Shown one piece after another: positions 8,269 to 18,117 of a stretch of 25,759 bases of DNA. The stretch lies in the IMG/VR virus record IMGVR_UViG_3300021963_000585, positions 1-25,759 of that record; one strand, written 5' to 3'. Source of the stretch: a virus. The notes below the pieces were generated by a model. It was not told the origin of the DNA. It ran no database searches and saw only the letters and a program-made list of their open reading frames with translations. Made by a program: the position numbers and the translations under genes. Numbering within the stretch: position 1 is the stretch's first letter; every line of letters begins with the position of its first letter.

Positions 8269-9017
8269 TGGTACTTTCTTTTACTGAATTTATTAATGAA
8301 AATGAATCAGCTAATCTTGCATTTCTCAAGAAGTTAGCAAAACATGTCATTAATAAAGTAAAAGATTTAGACCGCTCTGAAGATCAAGAATATCAAATCA
8401 TTGACCGTTCTGAATTGACAGACCCTTTCCTTTTTGACCTAATTGTCTATTTACGAAGAGATCGAAACCCTAACTTTAAAGAGGACGAACATTTTAATGG
8501 ACTTGCTTGGGAACTTATTAACTTTCAAGATCTTGGCTATTCAATTGATGCTAATACTTATGTTAATACTGGAGACTTAACTGTTCCAGAAATAAAAGTA
8601 CATATCCTATTAGATCCAACCAAGGAGCCTTTATCATATAATAAACTATTCAATAGAGTATACGATATCTTAATTCACGAAACTAACCACTTAGATCAAG
8701 TAGGAATAAATCGTGATCCATTTAATGTTAAACCAAGTACTCAAGAGGACAGAAAAGCTGCAAAAGGTTCATATCAATACTTTTTATTACCTGATGAAAT
8801 TGAATCAATGGTAGAAGGAATGTATGGTAAATCAGAAGAGTCCAATACTCCATTAGATCAAGTATTTTTTGATTACTTATCTCCACTTGTTAAAAGTAGA
8901 TTTATGACCACTCAAGAATTAGCTAAAGTTATGCAAGTATGGGTTACTCATGCAGTTGAAACCTATCCAAATGCTAAGTTTTCATCAAAAGTAGACGATA
9001 TTATCAATAATCTTTAA
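8268..9017 (+). CDS. HExxH metalloprotease-like protein with capsid-targeting N-terminus
   Basis: 249 residues. The first 12 residues, MVLSFTEFINEN, match those of the gene at 7542 at 10 of 12 positions and fit the T4 capsid-targeting pattern, with cleavage predicted after E11 (I-N-E). The mature part carries HETNH at 137-141 (HExxH) in a helix (YDILIHETNHLDQ). About 38 residues later comes LPDEIES, where E177 or E179 could be the third zinc ligand; this spacing is typical of gluzincin-like families with a P-x-E-x-E signature. There is no secretion signal or membrane segment. The simplest reading is a zinc-dependent protease packaged in the head and delivered with the DNA. Proteolysis, packaging and target are not shown by sequence. 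A non-enzymatic HExxH match remains possible, though motif context argues against chance. Confidence 0.7.
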   Translation: MVLSFTEFINENESANLAFLKKLAKHVINKVKDLDRSEDQEYQIIDRSELTDPFLFDLIVYLRRDRNPNFKEDEHFNGLAWELINFQDLGYSIDANTYVNTGDLTVPEIKVHILLDPTKEPLSYNKLFNRVYDILIHETNHLDQVGINRDPFNVKPSTQEDRKAAKGSYQYFLLPDEIESMVEGMYGKSEESNTPLDQVFFDYLSPLVKSRFMTTQELAKVMQVWVTHAVETYPNAKFSSKVDDIINNL

Positions 9018-9061
9018 AACCTATTCCTAAATCGTAGTAAAATACTCTAAAATTATTACAA

Positions 9062-9325
9062 ATGAACGATTTTGAAAAACTAAAAGAAGAGATCGCAGCA
9101 GTACAGGCTACTGTTTTTGGTCCAATTAACGATTTGATTACTGCAGCGGAAGATGACGCCGTTAAATACTACGACAAAGGAGTAAAATCTGCAGGCAACC
9201 GTCTTAAAAAGACAATGCAAGAAATTCGTAAAGCAATTAAGCACCCAGCAGTTAAAGCTGAAATGACTAAAGTTCAAGAAGGTGCAAAAGCTCTTCGTCA
9301 AAAATTAGTTGACGCTAGTAAATAA
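9062..9325 (+). CDS. Histone H1-like (Hc1-type) basic protein
   Basis: 87 residues, helical, Lys-rich. The segment YYDKGVKSAGNRLKKTMQEI resembles Hc1/histone H1-like proteins, which are widespread in Bacteroidota (typically F-Y-D-K-G-N-K-A-A-G-x-R-x-R-K-x-M-Q-E-L). The second half (KAIKHPAVKAEMTKVQEG) is basic and helical, fitting non-specific DNA binding. In the phage it might condense packaged DNA or act on the host nucleoid. It has no capsid-targeting N-terminus, unlike the three genes before it, but shares their transcription unit up to the terminator at 9350. The 14 bases before its start (TAAAATTATTACAA) are identical to those before the ssDNA-binding protein gene. Confidence 0.65.
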   Translation: MNDFEKLKEEIAAVQATVFGPINDLITAAEDDAVKYYDKGVKSAGNRLKKTMQEIRKAIKHPAVKAEMTKVQEGAKALRQKLVDASK

Positions 9326-9349
9326 TTTGTTTTTGTTTTTAAGTTATAG

Positions 9350-9380
9350 AAAAACCGTGCCTTTTTAGGTACGGTTTTTT
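9350..9380 (+). terminator. Intrinsic terminator after the Hc1-like gene
   Basis: AAAAACCGTGCC (9350-9361) pairs with GGTACGGTTTTTT around a short T-rich loop, with one G-U pair, and ends in a T tract. It closes the cargo unit. Confidence 0.88.
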
Positions 9381-9471
9381 TCTTTTACAAGAAACTTTAG
9401 TAGTCTAAAGCATCACTGCTTTTAAACGCTTCCCAGATTTTGTACTTATTTTATAATAAATGTTTTACTTT

Positions 9472-9501
9472 TTGAAAAATTAACTTAAACTTTAGTATAC
9501 T
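9472..9501 (+). promoter_or_regulatory. Putative promoter for the ssDNA-binding protein operon
   Basis: TTGAAA (9472-9477), an 18-base spacer and TATACT (9496-9501) give a good sigma70-like promoter 37 bases before the start codon. The -10 is embedded in GTATACTAGTC, identical to the nrdB promoter. Starting near 9508, the leader would be about 30 bases of unstructured A/U sequence. In T4, gp32 binds such a leader to repress its own synthesis, so this is a candidate autogenous operator. Overlapping small hairpins at 9395-9422 lie upstream of this promoter. Confidence 0.55.
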
Positions 9502-9525
9502 AGTCCAGTATAACATATTAAATAA

Positions 9526-9539
9526 TAAAATTATTACAA
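9526..9539 (+). promoter_or_regulatory. Shared A/T-rich translation leader without Shine-Dalgarno
   Basis: TAAAATTATTACAA directly abuts the ssDNA-binding protein ATG. The same 14 bases occur at 9048-9061 before the Hc1-like gene, and a related AAAAATTATT precedes the UvsX start at 19627. No purine-rich anti-16S sequence is present. This is the style of initiation known for Bacteroidota, where A-rich leaders replace Shine-Dalgarno pairing. Confidence 0.5.
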
Positions 9540-10543
9540 TGACAGATTTTTTTGACTTACCAGAAGACGCTTTCGCAAAGAAAAACGTGTCTTCAAAACC
9601 AAAAGTGGATCCAAACATTTATGACCCGGATCCAAATGCTCACAACGGATCGTATAAATCAGTAATACGATTTGTTCCTTATTTGGCAGACAAAACAAAA
9701 AGCAAGTATACTAAGTATTCTGCTAAGTTTTGGAATCCTCTAACTAAGGAATCCTTGATAGTTGACTGTCCTTCAAATGTTGAAAAACCTTCAATCCTTT
9801 GGACAATAGAATCAACTCTTCGCTCACTTAAAAAAGAGGAGCCAGATTTAGTTGCTGAAATTGAGAAAAGTTTCTCTCGTTGGTATACTCACCACTCACC
9901 GGTGTATATCAAAAAAGATCCACAAAGACCTGATTTAGAAGGAACTGTTAAGCTCTTTAAATTCAGAAATCAAGTGGACATGATTATTGATGCACAAATG
10001 AATCCTGATGAGTTAGAAGGCCTTTCTGCTTCACGCAAAATCAATCCATTCCACCTACTTGAAGGAAAAGATTTCCTTTGTATTGTTGGTAAAAAGACTC
10101 AACAATTCCGTGACTGGAGCAAATGTAAATTTATGGATGAAGTTTCTCCATTAATTTTCAAAATAGGTGAAACTCAAGTAACTGTTAAAAATGACGAGAA
10201 GTCAGTTAAATTAGTTACCGAGTTCTTATCTAAAAATACTCCAAGCATGGATGAGTATTTGCACCGCGAATGGACTGATGAGACTTTTGAAAAAGTAGCA
10301 GAAGCTGTAATCTCCGCAATTCCTCAACGTGAAATCCTTAACATGATTCTTGAAAGAAGTAAGGATACTCGAATGAATGAGTTAATTAAAGCTCGTCTTT
10401 TGCCTAGAAAATCAGCTACTCCAGCAGCAGCTAAAGTTGACGAAGACCTAGACTTTACTACTCCTTCTGCTCCAGCGGCAGCTCCAGCAGCGGCTGATAC
10501 TTCAGCAGATGACGAATACGATTCACTATTCGCTGATCTATAA
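9539..10543 (+). CDS. 32: Single-stranded DNA-binding protein, gp32-like
   Basis: 334 residues. The layout follows T4 gp32: a short basic N-terminal region with a Lys/Ser segment (AKKNVSSKPK) for cooperative binding, a central OB-fold core (FVPYLADKTKSKYTKYSAKFWNPLT through about residue 220), an Ala/Pro-rich linker and an acidic C-terminal tail ending DDEYDSLFADL. The protein coats ssDNA and recruits replication proteins through the tail. The zinc cluster of T4 gp32 is not visible: there is one Cys near the expected place (C77) and no C-x2-C, so this core probably folds without zinc. The tail tip is nearly the same as that of the gp41-like helicase (DDDYDALFNSI). Own putative promoter; short A/U leader. 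Confidence 0.88.
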   Translation: MTDFFDLPEDAFAKKNVSSKPKVDPNIYDPDPNAHNGSYKSVIRFVPYLADKTKSKYTKYSAKFWNPLTKESLIVDCPSNVEKPSILWTIESTLRSLKKEEPDLVAEIEKSFSRWYTHHSPVYIKKDPQRPDLEGTVKLFKFRNQVDMIIDAQMNPDELEGLSASRKINPFHLLEGKDFLCIVGKKTQQFRDWSKCKFMDEVSPLIFKIGETQVTVKNDEKSVKLVTEFLSKNTPSMDEYLHREWTDETFEKVAEAVISAIPQREILNMILERSKDTRMNELIKARLLPRKSATPAAAKVDEDLDFTTPSAPAAAPAAADTSADDEYDSLFADL

Positions 10544-10556
10544 AAATAGAGAACAG

Positions 10557-10844
10557 ATGGAAGAGACCACTCAAACACAACAGACTCCGGCCGAAAATCC
10601 GGAGTCTTCTACTAACAATATCTTATTTGGTACTATTACCTATGCTGATGAACCTGCATACGAGAATTTTATCCAAAATATGAATATTAATCAAGCGATC
10701 TTTGTTCTAGTCGCTTCTGCTAATTTTGCTCAAGCTAAAGGAGCGTATAATCTTTTAGAATCTGAGACAATTTCAACAGCAATTAGAACAATCAGAAAAG
10801 CGCAAGAGCCTACACAAGAACCAACAGAAGAAAAAGAACAATAA
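10557..10844 (+). CDS. Small hypothetical protein downstream of the ssDNA-binding protein
   Basis: 95 residues from ATG 10557, 13 bases after the upstream stop. In-frame ATG 10509 lies inside the previous gene and is less likely. The ends are low-complexity and charged (TTQTQQTPAENPESS; TQEPTEEKEQ). The middle is a compact helical block (FIQNMNINQAIFVLVASANFAQAKGAYNLLESETISTAIRTIRKA). Family not recognised. One base separates it from RNase H. The first codons contain a strong GC-rich hairpin (10583-10606). Confidence 0.65.
   Translation: MEETTQTQQTPAENPESSTNNILFGTITYADEPAYENFIQNMNINQAIFVLVASANFAQAKGAYNLLESETISTAIRTIRKAQEPTQEPTEEKEQ
10583..10606 (+). promoter_or_regulatory. GC-rich hairpin inside a coding region, just after the SSB gene
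   Basis: GACTCCGG (10583-10590) and CCGGAGTC (10599-10606) form a perfect 8-bp stem with an 8-base loop, unusually GC-rich for this genome. It lies 40 bases past the SSB stop and inside codons 9-17 of the next gene. It is followed by TTCT, not a T-run, so full termination is unlikely. It could protect the SSB message 3' end or damp downstream expression. Confidence 0.45.
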
Positions 10845-10845
10845 G

Positions 10846-11985
10846 ATGGACTTAATTATAGATGGAAACGCGTTTATTAATGTTGCAATTAGTGTAACAA
10901 AAGCTCAAACGTCTAGGGACAAACGTTCCATGGATGCATATTGGGTAAATGATTTATTTAATGATGGCGGTTTTATCTTAAAAGACAATGTTCGAACAGC
11001 TTTTAGAAATTTTTGTTTTACTTACCTTAATTCCTTAATTGCACCAATTGCCTCTAATCCAGAAAAGGTGCATATTGTATTTGACTCAAAAAGTTGGAGA
11101 AAAGAATGGACTGAAAACTTCTTTAAAATTGGAGCCTTTTCAACTACTTCTGCTCCTACTGAATTTAAATACAAAGGAAATCGTAAGTATGATGAGCACC
11201 AATATCTTTTCTTTGATTACTTTCAACAGGTCCTAATGCCAGCTCTTTCTGAAAAGGCAGGAATTAATCAATACCGATTTAAAGATACTGAAGGTGATGA
11301 TATTATTGCATATCTTTGTGAAAATCTGGACACCGATATCCTAATCTATTCAGTTGACCAAGATTTAAAACAGTTGACTGGTAATAAGGATAAGAACGTT
11401 CTCTTAATTACGCCAAAACAAATGGCAAAAACAAAGAGACTTTTTGTACCAGAAAATCTAGTTCCAACTATTGCTGATGACGAAGTAGATAATTTCTTTT
11501 CCTTAAATGATGCTCACATTAGCGGAGCAACTATTGAAAAGACTATTTCAAATCTAGTAAGCAAAGATTTTGTTGAGCATAAAGTCGATTTTATTCCTGA
11601 AACTCTTAGTAAAATATTTTTAGGTGATAAATCAGATAATATCCCAAAGATTACAGGAATTACTCCAGTTAAATCTACTAAATTAATTACTCAACTTACT
11701 GAAAAGTTTGGTGAATCGTTAATGTCTGAATTAGATGACATTTCCGATTCTATACTTAATGAACTAGTTGAAGGGATTCAAACCCTAAATAAAATTAAAG
11801 ATCAGGATAAATTAAATGAGATCAGAGATAATATAGTTCTTAACATTAGACTAATACGTCTTTCGACTAAAGTTTTCCCAGAAGAAATCAGGGATGCTAT
11901 CGAAGAGGAATTTAAGAGCACTCAATTATCTCAATTTAATTATCGAGAATTTTTAAACTTAAAAAATAATCAAACATCACTATGA
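10846..11985 (+). CDS. rnh: 5'-3' exonuclease / RNase H, T4 Rnh-like flap nuclease
   Basis: 379 residues. It removes RNA primers and 5' flaps during lagging-strand synthesis. FEN-family landmarks: MDLIIDGNAF (first catalytic Asp), HIVFDSKSWRKE (second Asp, followed by the arch region), YKGNRK (basic clamp), DTEGDDIIAYL (E-x-D-D), YSVDQDLKQL (D-x-D) and FLGDKSDNIPKITGI (the G-D-x-S-D-N helix-hairpin-helix). All metal-binding acidic positions appear intact. It is longer than T4 Rnh (about 305 residues), with an insert around residues 185-245 and an extended helical C-terminus. Lies one base after the preceding gene and overlaps the GroES start by 4 bases (ATGA), so it is in the SSB operon. Confidence 0.92.
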   Translation: MDLIIDGNAFINVAISVTKAQTSRDKRSMDAYWVNDLFNDGGFILKDNVRTAFRNFCFTYLNSLIAPIASNPEKVHIVFDSKSWRKEWTENFFKIGAFSTTSAPTEFKYKGNRKYDEHQYLFFDYFQQVLMPALSEKAGINQYRFKDTEGDDIIAYLCENLDTDILIYSVDQDLKQLTGNKDKNVLLITPKQMAKTKRLFVPENLVPTIADDEVDNFFSLNDAHISGATIEKTISNLVSKDFVEHKVDFIPETLSKIFLGDKSDNIPKITGITPVKSTKLITQLTEKFGESLMSELDDISDSILNELVEGIQTLNKIKDQDKLNEIRDNIVLNIRLIRLSTKVFPEEIRDAIEEEFKSTQLSQFNYREFLNLKNNQTSL

Positions 11986-12281
11986 AACCTTTATTTGAAA
12001 GAGTTTTAGTTAAACCTCGAGACAAAGAGACCACTACTAAGCAAGGAATTATGCTTCCTGAAAAAGCTGTAAAGAAGCCTAATGTAGGTACAGTTATTGC
12101 CGCTGGCCCAGGTTCTACTCATAATCCAATGCCAGTTGCGCCAGGAGATCTAGTTCTCTTTAATCGTTACGCTGGTGCTGAAATGTTTATCAAAGGAGAA
12201 AAACATTTTATGATTATGGCTAATGAACTTATTTGCATCCTAGATGATATTGATGAAGTATCACTAGAAGAATTTGAATAG
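11982..12281 (+). CDS. groES: GroES-type cochaperonin (10 kDa)
   Basis: 99 residues. It starts MKPLFERVLVKPRDKETTTKQ and continues with the mobile loop that docks on GroEL (GIMLPEKA), then VGTVIAAGPG and GDLVLFNRYAGAEM, ending with a short acidic tail (DDIDEVSLEEFE) beyond the usual core. The fold signature is that of true bacterial GroES more than of T4 gp31, which is divergent. It should cap the phage GroEL encoded at 1370-3004, although they are in separate transcription units. Start overlaps the RNase H stop (ATGA). A bidirectional terminator follows. Confidence 0.95.
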   Translation: MKPLFERVLVKPRDKETTTKQGIMLPEKAVKKPNVGTVIAAGPGSTHNPMPVAPGDLVLFNRYAGAEMFIKGEKHFMIMANELICILDDIDEVSLEEFE

Positions 12282-15996: not shown

Positions 15997-16464
15997 ATGG
16001 CGAACACCGACAATGAATGTAAAGACCTTCCGATAGCGGATCTTTACGAAAAATCCACCACTCACTTAGCCGACATAATGGCTCATCAAAAGAAGATGCA
16101 AGAGGAGACTTATGGTTTTAACTTTGAAACCATGACACTTCGAGAAATCATGAATTTTTGGCATGCAAATACTCATGCTACCATTGATGAGATCCATGAA
16201 ATGACTGACGCTCTTGGCGGAATTAAAGACGGTGATGGCAATGCAATATGGAAGTATTGGAAAAAAGCCCATAAGAAATACGATACCATGACTATCGCTG
16301 ACCTATCTGAAGGCGATAAGAAGGAGCTCTATATGGAATGGGTAGATATACTCCACTTCTTTATTAATTATGCCGTGTCTATTGGATTAGACGCAAAAAC
16401 TGCGTATGACTACTACTTCTCAAAAGCGGCCGAAAATCAAAACCGACAAAATAACAATTATTAA
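15997..16464 (+). CDS. Dimeric all-alpha dUTPase (MazG-like superfamily)
   Basis: 155 residues. It hydrolyses dUTP to dUMP, keeping uracil out of phage DNA and feeding dTMP synthesis. Features of the all-alpha dUTPase family are the first metal-binding helix HATIDEIHEMTDALGG (E-x2-E), the later helix ELYMEWVDILHFFINYAVSIG (E-x3-D with LHF), the YYFSKAAENQNRQNNNY segment matching the K-x2-x-N-x2-R-Q-x-x-x-Y phosphate-binding end, and a short mainly charged N-terminus. dCTPase activity cannot be excluded. It opens the operon that leads into the polymerase; the next gene starts one base after the stop. Confidence 0.82.
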   Translation: MANTDNECKDLPIADLYEKSTTHLADIMAHQKKMQEETYGFNFETMTLREIMNFWHANTHATIDEIHEMTDALGGIKDGDGNAIWKYWKKAHKKYDTMTIADLSEGDKKELYMEWVDILHFFINYAVSIGLDAKTAYDYYFSKAAENQNRQNNNY

Positions 16465-16465
16465 G

Positions 16466-16696
16466 ATGGATAATTTACAAGGAGGAGAACCTAAACTCAA
16501 TATTCAAGAGCACCTAGCTGATGCTCCATATATCGAATGTGAAGCTTGCGGAAGCACTCAATTCGTAGAGCAAATGATGATTAAAAGAATTTCAAAATTC
16601 TTAACAGGCGGTATACAGGATTCAATTACCCCAGTCCCAGTTATCGCTTGTGCAATGTGTAATAATGTTAACGAACTATTTAAACCTAAACTATGA
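16466..16696 (+). CDS. Small zinc-ribbon protein
   Basis: 76 residues from ATG 16466; in-frame ATG 16406 lies inside the dUTPase gene and is rejected. Two Cys pairs, ECEACGS (about residue 30) and ACAMCNN (about 64), are separated by about 34 residues, giving a four-Cys zinc ribbon with a basic connector (MIKRISKFLTGG). Similar small proteins occur in other large phages, but no specific function is known to me. DNA, RNA or RNA-polymerase contact would suit such a fold. Its stop overlaps the polymerase start by 4 bases, so the two are translationally coupled. Confidence 0.75.
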   Translation: MDNLQGGEPKLNIQEHLADAPYIECEACGSTQFVEQMMIKRISKFLTGGIQDSITPVPVIACAMCNNVNELFKPKL

Positions 16697-18117
16697 TTAT
16701 TGGCGCTGAAGTACTTAATGAAAATACCCTTATTATTTCTTATTACGATGAGAAAGGCAAGATTGCATTTATTAAAAAGCAATTAGCTGATCATGAAATG
16801 TATAATTGGGTTGAATCTGCTACTCCAACTGCCACTAAGAACTGGAACGGTAAGTTTGTTAAACGTGCTCCAACTAAAGGGCAATACATAAATCAATTTA
16901 GGGTACAAGAATTAATTCAAGAAAAATTATCAGCTGAAGAATTAGAAATAGTTTACAGCTTTGATAATACCCCTAAGAAAACCTATATGGATATCGAGAT
17001 TAAGCTGATTAATGACTCTTTCCCAGAGCCAGATAAAGCTGCGATGCCAATCGGTCTTATCTCCTTCTGCAATGAAGATAATATTACCTATATTCTTTCA
17101 ATCCTAAATACTGAAGAACAGCCTGGTGGATTAACCCCAGATGAAATTCGTAAAATGGAAGTTGAAGTAAACGAATATTTTAGAAAAACGGTTCCATTAC
17201 GACCAGAAGATGCTAAGCTATTTCAACAAGAATTTAAGATCAAGTATAAATTCTTTGATACCGAAGAAGAGTTAATGGAATTCTATCTTCATAAATGCGT
17301 TCCTCAATTTTCTTTTGTAACTGGCTGGAATGTAACTGACTTTGACCAGAAGTATATTATGAATCGTGCTAAAAACATAAAAGTCGATTCAATGCTTAAG
17401 ATGCCATCCCGATCAGCTATGGGTAAAAATCGTATTCCTGTTCATATGGGAATGCTTGATTATATGCAAGTCTTTGAAAAGTTAAAGCCATATAAAGTAG
17501 TTGAGAACTACAAACTAGACTATATTGCTGAATTAGTTTTAGGTACAGCTAAATTAAAGCATCCTTACTCTTCATTTATGGAATTCCAAAAGGATGTTTA
17601 CTTATTTACTATGTATAACGTAATTGACGTTGTCCTTGTAAAGTTAATTGAAGATAAACTTTCAATCTTAGATGTAGCTTACTCAATTGCAAGTGTTGCA
17701 CAGGTCGAAGTTAATAAAGTATTTAGCCCAGTTTATATTACTGAAATCCTAATGTGTCGTGAGTTTCTTAATAAGAACTTAAAAATGATGAAACTTCCTT
17801 GGGGAGAATCAAATACTGCTGATGCTACTTATGAAGGTGCTTATGTAAAAGACCCAATTCCTGGCTACTATGATGCAATCGCATGTTATGACTTTTCATC
17901 AATGTACCCAAATATCCAAATTCAGTTTAATATCTCACCAGATACTTACCTTGGTAAAATCGACCAAGTAAAAAGAAAAGGTGATGAAATTCCAACTAAA
18001 AATGGAACCTTATTCTCCAGTCGAGAAGATTCAGTTTCTAGAAAAATCCTAACCCGACTCTATGATGAACGTATCTTAACTCAAGGAGAAATCAAAAAAT
18101 TAAAAAATTCAAAATAA
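16693..18117 (+). CDS. 43: B-family DNA polymerase, N-terminal half (exonuclease plus motif A), gp43-like
   Basis: 474 residues against about 898 in T4 gp43. The exonuclease domain is intact: Exo I YMDIEIKL (D100, E102), Exo II TGWNVTDFDQ (D218) and Exo III YNVIDVVLV (Y-x3-D). Motif A follows as CYDFSSMYPNIQIQFNISPDTYLG, split here by a stop soon after: the protein ends LYDERILTQGEIKKLKNSK, in what should be the start of the fingers. Motif B (K-x3-N-S-x-Y-G), motif C (D-T-D-S) and the thumb are missing. Nothing in any frame from 18118 to 19023 resembles them, so a sequencing frameshift is unlikely. A separate C-terminal subunit gene elsewhere is the best explanation, as reported for some T4-like phages and for Methanothermobacter PolB. 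A truncated exonuclease-only protein is the alternative. Confidence 0.92.
   Translation: MIIGAEVLNENTLIISYYDEKGKIAFIKKQLADHEMYNWVESATPTATKNWNGKFVKRAPTKGQYINQFRVQELIQEKLSAEELEIVYSFDNTPKKTYMDIEIKLINDSFPEPDKAAMPIGLISFCNEDNITYILSILNTEEQPGGLTPDEIRKMEVEVNEYFRKTVPLRPEDAKLFQQEFKIKYKFFDTEEELMEFYLHKCVPQFSFVTGWNVTDFDQKYIMNRAKNIKVDSMLKMPSRSAMGKNRIPVHMGMLDYMQVFEKLKPYKVVENYKLDYIAELVLGTAKLKHPYSSFMEFQKDVYLFTMYNVIDVVLVKLIEDKLSILDVAYSIASVAQVEVNKVFSPVYITEILMCREFLNKNLKMMKLPWGESNTADATYEGAYVKDPIPGYYDAIACYDFSSMYPNIQIQFNISPDTYLGKIDQVKRKGDEIPTKNGTLFSSREDSVSRKILTRLYDERILTQGEIKKLKNSK

What the first reader, a model, noticed from the sequence alone, without database searches (positions are those of the whole stretch)
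16693..18117. DNA polymerase gene stops between motif A and motif B; the C-terminal half is absent here
The 474-residue protein has all three exonuclease motifs and motif A but no motif B, motif C or thumb. Nothing resembling them follows before UvsX. The most likely reading is a two-subunit polymerase with its other half elsewhere. Split gp43 is known in some T4-like Aeromonas phages, but a break in the fingers with no homing endonuclease or intron alongside deserves comparison.
Basis: partly seen in the sequence, partly recalled or inferred. Interest (0 to 1): 0.6.

Follow-up and report, generated by a model that had tools for sequence, protein, structure and literature searches.

The report
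Two-gene phage DNA polymerase, split at fingertip
This phage carries only the first half of its DNA-copying enzyme here because, throughout a large group of aquatic and gut phages, the enzyme is made from two separate genes (in this phage's own clade 38-67 thousand bases apart) that are cut at one particular loop and must join up again as proteins.

Summary
ORF 16693-18117 (474 aa) is the N-terminal half of a gp43-like family B polymerase: exonuclease motifs and motif A present, motif B, motif C and thumb absent. It is not an error or a decayed gene: every related viral locus whose ORF could be read (about 157) stops at the same place, under strong purifying selection. The missing half exists. 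In every relative contig of 176 kb or more (19 of 19) a separate gene with motif B, motif C (YTDTDS) and thumb was found; in the window's clade it lies 38-67 kb downstream on the same strand. The halves cover Pfam DNA_pol_B positions 21-141 and 146-450; the break is the fingertip loop. N-half and C-half trees match (Mantel r 0.95), and no PolA or PolIII was found in relatives. The same cut occurs in Lak megaphages, 635-kb phages, PAU, PTm1, pT24 and MA9V, probably from one ancient event separate from the Aeromonas split. No intein or homing gene sits at this cut, though some relatives carry a split intein at motif C. Most likely a two-subunit polymerase that reassembles without covalent joining: a new, widespread variant of a known kind. 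Assembly itself is untested.

The parts
16693..18117 (+). PolB N-half (gp43 N-terminal domain, exonuclease, first part of palm and fingers); ends at the fingertip
   Evidence: Pfam DNA_pol_B_exo1 and DNA_pol_B 21-141; PHROG 2062 and 262; AF2 model matches RB69 gp43 residues 5-496, Z 24
16990..16998 (+). exo I motif DIE (residues 100-102)
   Evidence: invariant in alignment A2
17323..17346 (+). exo II motif GWNVTDFD (residues 211-218)
   Evidence: G211, W212, N213 and D218 invariant in alignment A2
17614..17628 (+). exo III motif YNVID (residues 308-312)
   Evidence: Y308, N309, D312 invariant in alignment A2
17890..17910 (+). motif A DFSSMYP (residues 400-406)
   Evidence: D400, F401, S403, Y405, P406 invariant in alignments A1 and A2
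18034..18114 (+). first finger helix (residues 448-474) running to the stop codon: the fingertip break
   Evidence: AF2 helix 448-473; N-half aligns to archaeal PolB up to residue 469, C-half starts at 477
15997..16464 (+). NTP pyrophosphohydrolase-like gene that precedes the N-half here and in marine relatives (conserved neighbour, not part of the enzyme)
   Evidence: PHROG 173; same neighbour in L312, L313, L314, L316, L321

Best explanation
The gene is the N-terminal subunit of an obligate two-subunit family B DNA polymerase. It supplies the N-terminal domain, the 3'-5' exonuclease, the palm segment with the motif A aspartate, and the first finger helix. The second subunit, encoded in relatives by a gene 38-67 kb downstream next to primase, supplies the second finger helix with motif B, the motif C aspartates and the thumb. 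The two are translated separately and assemble non-covalently: the two finger helices pack antiparallel as in intact enzymes, leaving an open fingertip instead of a loop, and motifs A and C come together in the palm to make one active site. Shown here: both halves, their complementarity, conservation, co-occurrence and matched evolution. Inferred: physical assembly and activity, and that this phage itself has the second half.
For: Second half found in 19 of 19 relative contigs of 176 kb or more. Halves cover Pfam DNA_pol_B 21-141 and 146-450, leaving only 4 positions out. Break at the fingertip, archaeal PolB residues 469/477. AF2 models match RB69 gp43 5-496 (Z 24) and 426-901 (Z 23). In the N-half alone the palm around motif A (368-415) is predicted with pLDDT of about 36, as expected if it needs the partner (inference). 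Catalytic motifs intact in both halves. dN/dS where not saturated 0.03-0.09 for N-halves and 0.03-0.10 for C-halves. N and C trees agree, Mantel r 0.952 for 26 pairs and 0.961 for 11 pairs in the window clade. No DNA_pol_A and no DNA_pol3_alpha over its cut-off in 8 large relatives. Precedent: 43A and 43B of Aeromonas phage 25 co-purify and are active (PMC2988022).
Against: No physical or biochemical evidence of assembly for this lineage. The window's own C-half is outside the 25.8-kb record. The two halves could not be predicted together as a complex. Use of a host or highly diverged polymerase cannot be fully excluded. Shared ancestry of whole genomes contributes to the tree agreement.
Confidence: 0.9

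Rival explanations
1. The two transcripts or proteins are ligated in trans (split intein or split group I/II intron), so that the working enzyme is a single chain.
For: Split inteins are common in phage PolB and occur in this very family, at motif C: L153, L162, Tenacibaculum PTm1, Lak-A2, LR756500; also MIJ3 (PMC6892783).
Against: No intein splicing segment at the end of the N-half or the start of the C-half: the N-half ends soon after the LYxxR finger helix and the C-half starts about 18-40 residues before motif B in most members. No Rfam intron in the window or the related loci tested. The intein sites in the same family are at motif C, not at the fingertip.
Confidence: 0.04
2. The N-half works alone, as a nuclease or regulator, while replication uses another polymerase.
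For: The N-terminal part of T4 gp43 with the exonuclease folds on its own (PDB 1noy, 388 aa). The window's own genome is not complete.
Against: Motif A and the finger helix are conserved as strongly as the exonuclease. The C-half is always present in long contigs and co-evolves. No PolA or PolIII found.
Confidence: 0.04
3. Assembly error, frameshift or decaying pseudogene.
For: None found.
Against: About 157 readable loci share the end point; dN/dS 0.03-0.09; four contigs of 270-271 kb from different samples have rotated start points but the same arrangement.
Confidence: 0.01

Closest known systems
Aeromonas phage 25 and 44RR2.8t split gp43 (43A/43B)
   Same: Same family B polymerase cut at the same place, the fingertip between motif A and motif B; the halves of phage 25 co-purify and are active (PMC2988022).
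   Different: Halves adjacent or parted only by a homing gene or a short untranslated spacer; belongs with T4 in the trees. Here the halves lie 1 to 67 kb or further apart, usually with ordinary genes between, across a large separate clade.
PHROG 2062 and PHROG 1918 (DNA polymerase); Sphingomonas phage PAU gp105/gp110, Tenacibaculum PTm1 and pT24, Chryseobacterium MA9V-1/2, Prevotella Lak phages
   Same: Same split, same clade.
   Different: Annotated merely as DNA polymerase pieces or not at all; in the papers I could search none describes the fingertip split as shared. PTm1 and Lak carry an extra split intein at motif C.
RB69/T4 gp43 (intact)
   Same: Both halves match it in fold (Z 23-24) and sequence.
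   Different: One chain, with a longer fingertip.
Methanothermobacter thermautotrophicus split PolB (Kelman 1999, cited in PMC3984812)
   Same: Family B polymerase from two genes.
   Different: Archaeal; the position of its break was not checked here.
Pseudomonas phage MIJ3 split PolB with split intein (PMC6892783)
   Same: PolB in two ORFs of a jumbo phage.
   Different: Reported as joined by a split intein with an HNH gene between; no intein at the cut studied here.

Membership tests
Family B DNA polymerase, T4 gp43 type | DEDD exonuclease motifs I, II, III and motif A | tested here: met
Family B DNA polymerase, T4 gp43 type | Motif B (KxxxNSxYG), motif C (YxDTDS), KKxY and thumb | tested here: met
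   Met only by the separate C-half gene of relatives; absent from the window itself
Split gp43 of the Aeromonas kind | Break in the fingers between motif A and motif B | tested here: met
Split gp43 of the Aeromonas kind | Common descent with Aeromonas 43A/43B | tested here: not met
   Aer44RR groups with T4 and WSPA, 100/99, in both trees; the window clade lies in another group, 100/100
Split gp43 of the Aeromonas kind | Halves co-purify and polymerise | not testable with these tools
   needs protein work
Split-intein (fractured) polymerase | Intein N and C segments at the break | tested here: not met
   No intein segments at the fingertip break; inteins only at motif C in some relatives

The most novel reading that the evidence does not exclude
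A single ancient cut at the fingertip gave a whole superclade of large, mostly Bacteroidota-infecting phages (freshwater and marine clades, PAU/PTm1/pT24/MA9V, Lak and 635-kb phages) an obligate two-subunit replicative polymerase that needs no intein or homing gene, with the two genes drifting apart (about 1 kb to tens or hundreds of kb) and now expressed from different operons, in the window's clade the N-half with UvsX and helicase and the C-half with primase.
Probability: 0.6. Interest if true: 0.62.

Novelty: new variant of a known kind. Interest (0 to 1): 0.5.

Why it matters
The replicative polymerase is usually treated as one indivisible chain, and split forms have been read as accidents of homing genes or inteins. 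Here the split looks ancient, stable and shared by a large part of jumbo and megaphage diversity, without a mobile element at the cut in most lineages. It suggests that the fingertip is a natural breakpoint of family B polymerases, gives cultured test systems (PAU, PTm1, pT24, MA9V), and explains why annotation reports 'partial' or duplicate polymerases in such phages, which matters when PolB is used as a phage marker gene.

Tried and rejected
Intact PolB, PolA or PolIII in large relatives: none over cut-off; one PolIII hit in G006 was below cut-off (13 bits against 23.9). Introns: no Rfam match in window, L312, L319, L321, L349. Readthrough or frameshift into motif B/C: no such ORF in any N-half locus flank. 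Homing gene between the halves as cause: in the compact marine arrangement nrdB, nrdA and a 250-aa gene lie between; in PAU and pT24 only a dUTPase and genes of unknown function; MA9V-2 has a TnpB-type gene between, and LR756500 has nuclease- and intein-like ORFs in the interval. I guessed that the 250-aa gene before the C-half is the sliding clamp, but Pfam, PHROGs and NCBIfam gave no support. Bacterial genome collection: one true relative, a 254-kb contig binned with an uncultured Bacteroidetes genome. Papers: the Lak, jumbo-phage and polymerase papers searched did not mention this split; Petrov 2010 and Dassa 2009 are not held.

Full report
Observation. The ORF at 16693-18117 (+) is 474 aa and matches Pfam DNA_pol_B_exo1 and the first third of DNA_pol_B (profile positions 21-141 of 453). 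Exonuclease motifs I-III and motif A are present and invariant among relatives; motif B, motif C and thumb are not encoded here. The window is a 25.8-kb virus record with no further contigs held, so the rest of this genome cannot be inspected.

The end point is real. A scan of IMG/VR with the protein gave 79 loci, mostly 37-80% identical, and a scan with an alignment gave 80 loci, partly the same, down to 31%. Every locus whose ORF could be read to its stop ends 70-92 residues after motif A, and no locus carries motif B plus motif C in the flank held. dN/dS between relatives is 0.03-0.09 where not saturated. A base error or decay is therefore excluded.

The second half. A DNA_pol_B search in whole relative contigs found a separate gene with motif B (KILINSxYGAFGN), motif C (YTDTDS), KKxY and thumb. 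Every contig of 176 kb or more with an N-half has it: 9, 3, 7 (six phage records and the 254-kb contig of a metagenome-assembled genome), 19 of 19 in all; some of these are near-copies of one another. The contigs without it are shorter (79-142 kb) and may be fragments. Four contigs of 270-271 kb from different samples have different start points and the same N-to-C spacing, also when counted across the contig ends, so they are probably circular permutations of a complete genome with exactly one N-half and one C-half. In the window's clade the halves are 38-67 kb apart on the same strand, N upstream of C. There the C-half starts an operon divergent from a hypothetical gene and overlaps a primase gene, while the N-half is followed, after small hypothetical genes, by UvsX, DnaB-like helicase and gp47-like genes.

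Where the cut is. Aligned with T4 and Aeromonas 44RR gp43, all cuts fall between the two finger helices. Against solved archaeal PolB the N-half aligns up to residue 469 and the C-half from residue 477, the fingertip loop. The C-half of a close relative covers Pfam positions 146-450, so only four profile positions are missing between the halves. AlphaFold2 models of the two halves match RB69 gp43 residues 5-496 (Z 24.4, rmsd 4.0, 403 aligned) and 426-901 (Z 23.0, rmsd 3.5, 326 aligned). The N-half's last helix runs to the final residues; its palm segment around motif A is predicted with low confidence alone, which I read as needing the partner (inference).

Co-evolution and origin. Trees of the N-half and C-half agree (Mantel r 0.952 over 26 pairs, 0.961 within the window clade). 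All split polymerases except that of Aeromonas fall in one group, 100/100, apart from T4, cyanophage and Ackermannvirus polymerases; the intact polymerase of Flavobacterium phage MaF61, a long branch, is nested in this group in the N tree and joins near its base in the C tree. Holding the split ones together without MaF61 is not rejected (p-AU 0.25), so one origin is possible; a re-fusion in MaF61 or two splits are not excluded. The Aeromonas split is independent.

A series of spacings. pT24 1.2 kb, PTm1 2.0 kb, PAU 2.4 kb, MA9V-2 3.5 kb, four contigs 4-5 kb, LR756500 10 kb, five others 14-17 kb, a 373-kb contig 36 kb, window clade 38-67 kb, and more than 100 kb and on opposite strands in 635-kb phages and Lak. 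In the contigs with 4-5 kb the genes between are nrdB, nrdA and a 250-aa gene of unknown function, and UvsX follows the C-half. In the 15-kb contig examined, a cassette that looks like sugar-nucleotide metabolism has been added (from sequence reading only). Thus the interval seems to have grown by ordinary gene insertion and rearrangement rather than by a homing gene at the cut.

Rivals. Splicing in trans is unlikely: no intein segments at the ends of either half, no Rfam intron. Inteins do occur in this family, but at motif C of the C-half: in one piece in L139, split with a nuclease-like gene between in L153 and L162, and similarly in PTm1, Lak-A2 and LR756500. There the polymerase is encoded in three pieces, one cut left open and the other presumably repaired by protein splicing, a contrast that fits the idea that the fingertip tolerates a break and motif C does not (inference).

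Known or new. Split gp43 with the same cut is known from Aeromonas phages, and the halves of phage 25 co-purify and are active (PMC2988022). PHROGs 2062 and 1918 are in effect the two halves, and GenBank entries list both pieces in PAU, PTm1, pT24 and MA9V. I found no paper stating that the split is shared, ancient and free of mobile elements in this group, but many subscription papers are not in the library and the two most relevant could not be read. I therefore call it a new variant of a known kind. Host range: isolates in the group infect Flavobacterium, Tenacibaculum, Chryseobacterium and Prevotella according to their records; PAU's record says Sphingomonas (I recall a later reassignment of that host to the Bacteroidota, not checked); the window's own host is not known. 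That the halves assemble and work together is inferred, not shown.

Noticed in passing
L139:8001-9917; L153:6042-9137; L162:6026-9140: In the window's own clade, some C-half genes carry an intein right after DTDS of motif C: in one piece in L139, split with a nuclease-like ORF between the two parts in L153 and L162. With the fingertip cut this makes a three-piece polymerase gene.
   Followed up: partly
L347:784-4184 and 8360-10650; L188:5887-8035; L346:5196-8002: LR756500, Lak-A2 and PTm1 have a split intein at the same motif C site; LR756500 also has a further intein-like C-terminal segment in the interval between the halves.
   Followed up: partly
L312:2116-2874, L313:7479-8237, L314:2717-3469, L316:16990-17739: A 250-aa protein of unknown family lies just before the PolB C-half in marine relatives; ORFs of similar size precede it in PAU and pT24. 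A diverged sliding clamp is a guess without support from Pfam, PHROGs or NCBIfam.
   Followed up: partly
L194:9681-10847: A TnpB-type RNA-guided endonuclease gene lies between the polymerase halves of Chryseobacterium phage MA9V-2.
   Followed up: no
L193:4246-7230: Flavobacterium phage MaF61 has an intact 994-aa PolB nested in or next to the split group; either an intact sister or a re-fusion.
   Followed up: partly
window:1370-3004 and 11982-12281: The phage encodes its own GroEL-like (Cpn60) and GroES-like (Cpn10) proteins about 9 kb apart.
   Followed up: no
window:18418-19011: A hypothetical protein behind the N-half holds the stretch NMFDMFG, resembling the clamp-binding tail of T4 gp43 (from memory); not tested.
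   Followed up: no
L279: A 254-kb phage-like contig with both polymerase halves is binned in a Bacteroidetes metagenome-assembled genome (CAIWBA010000291.1).
   Followed up: partly
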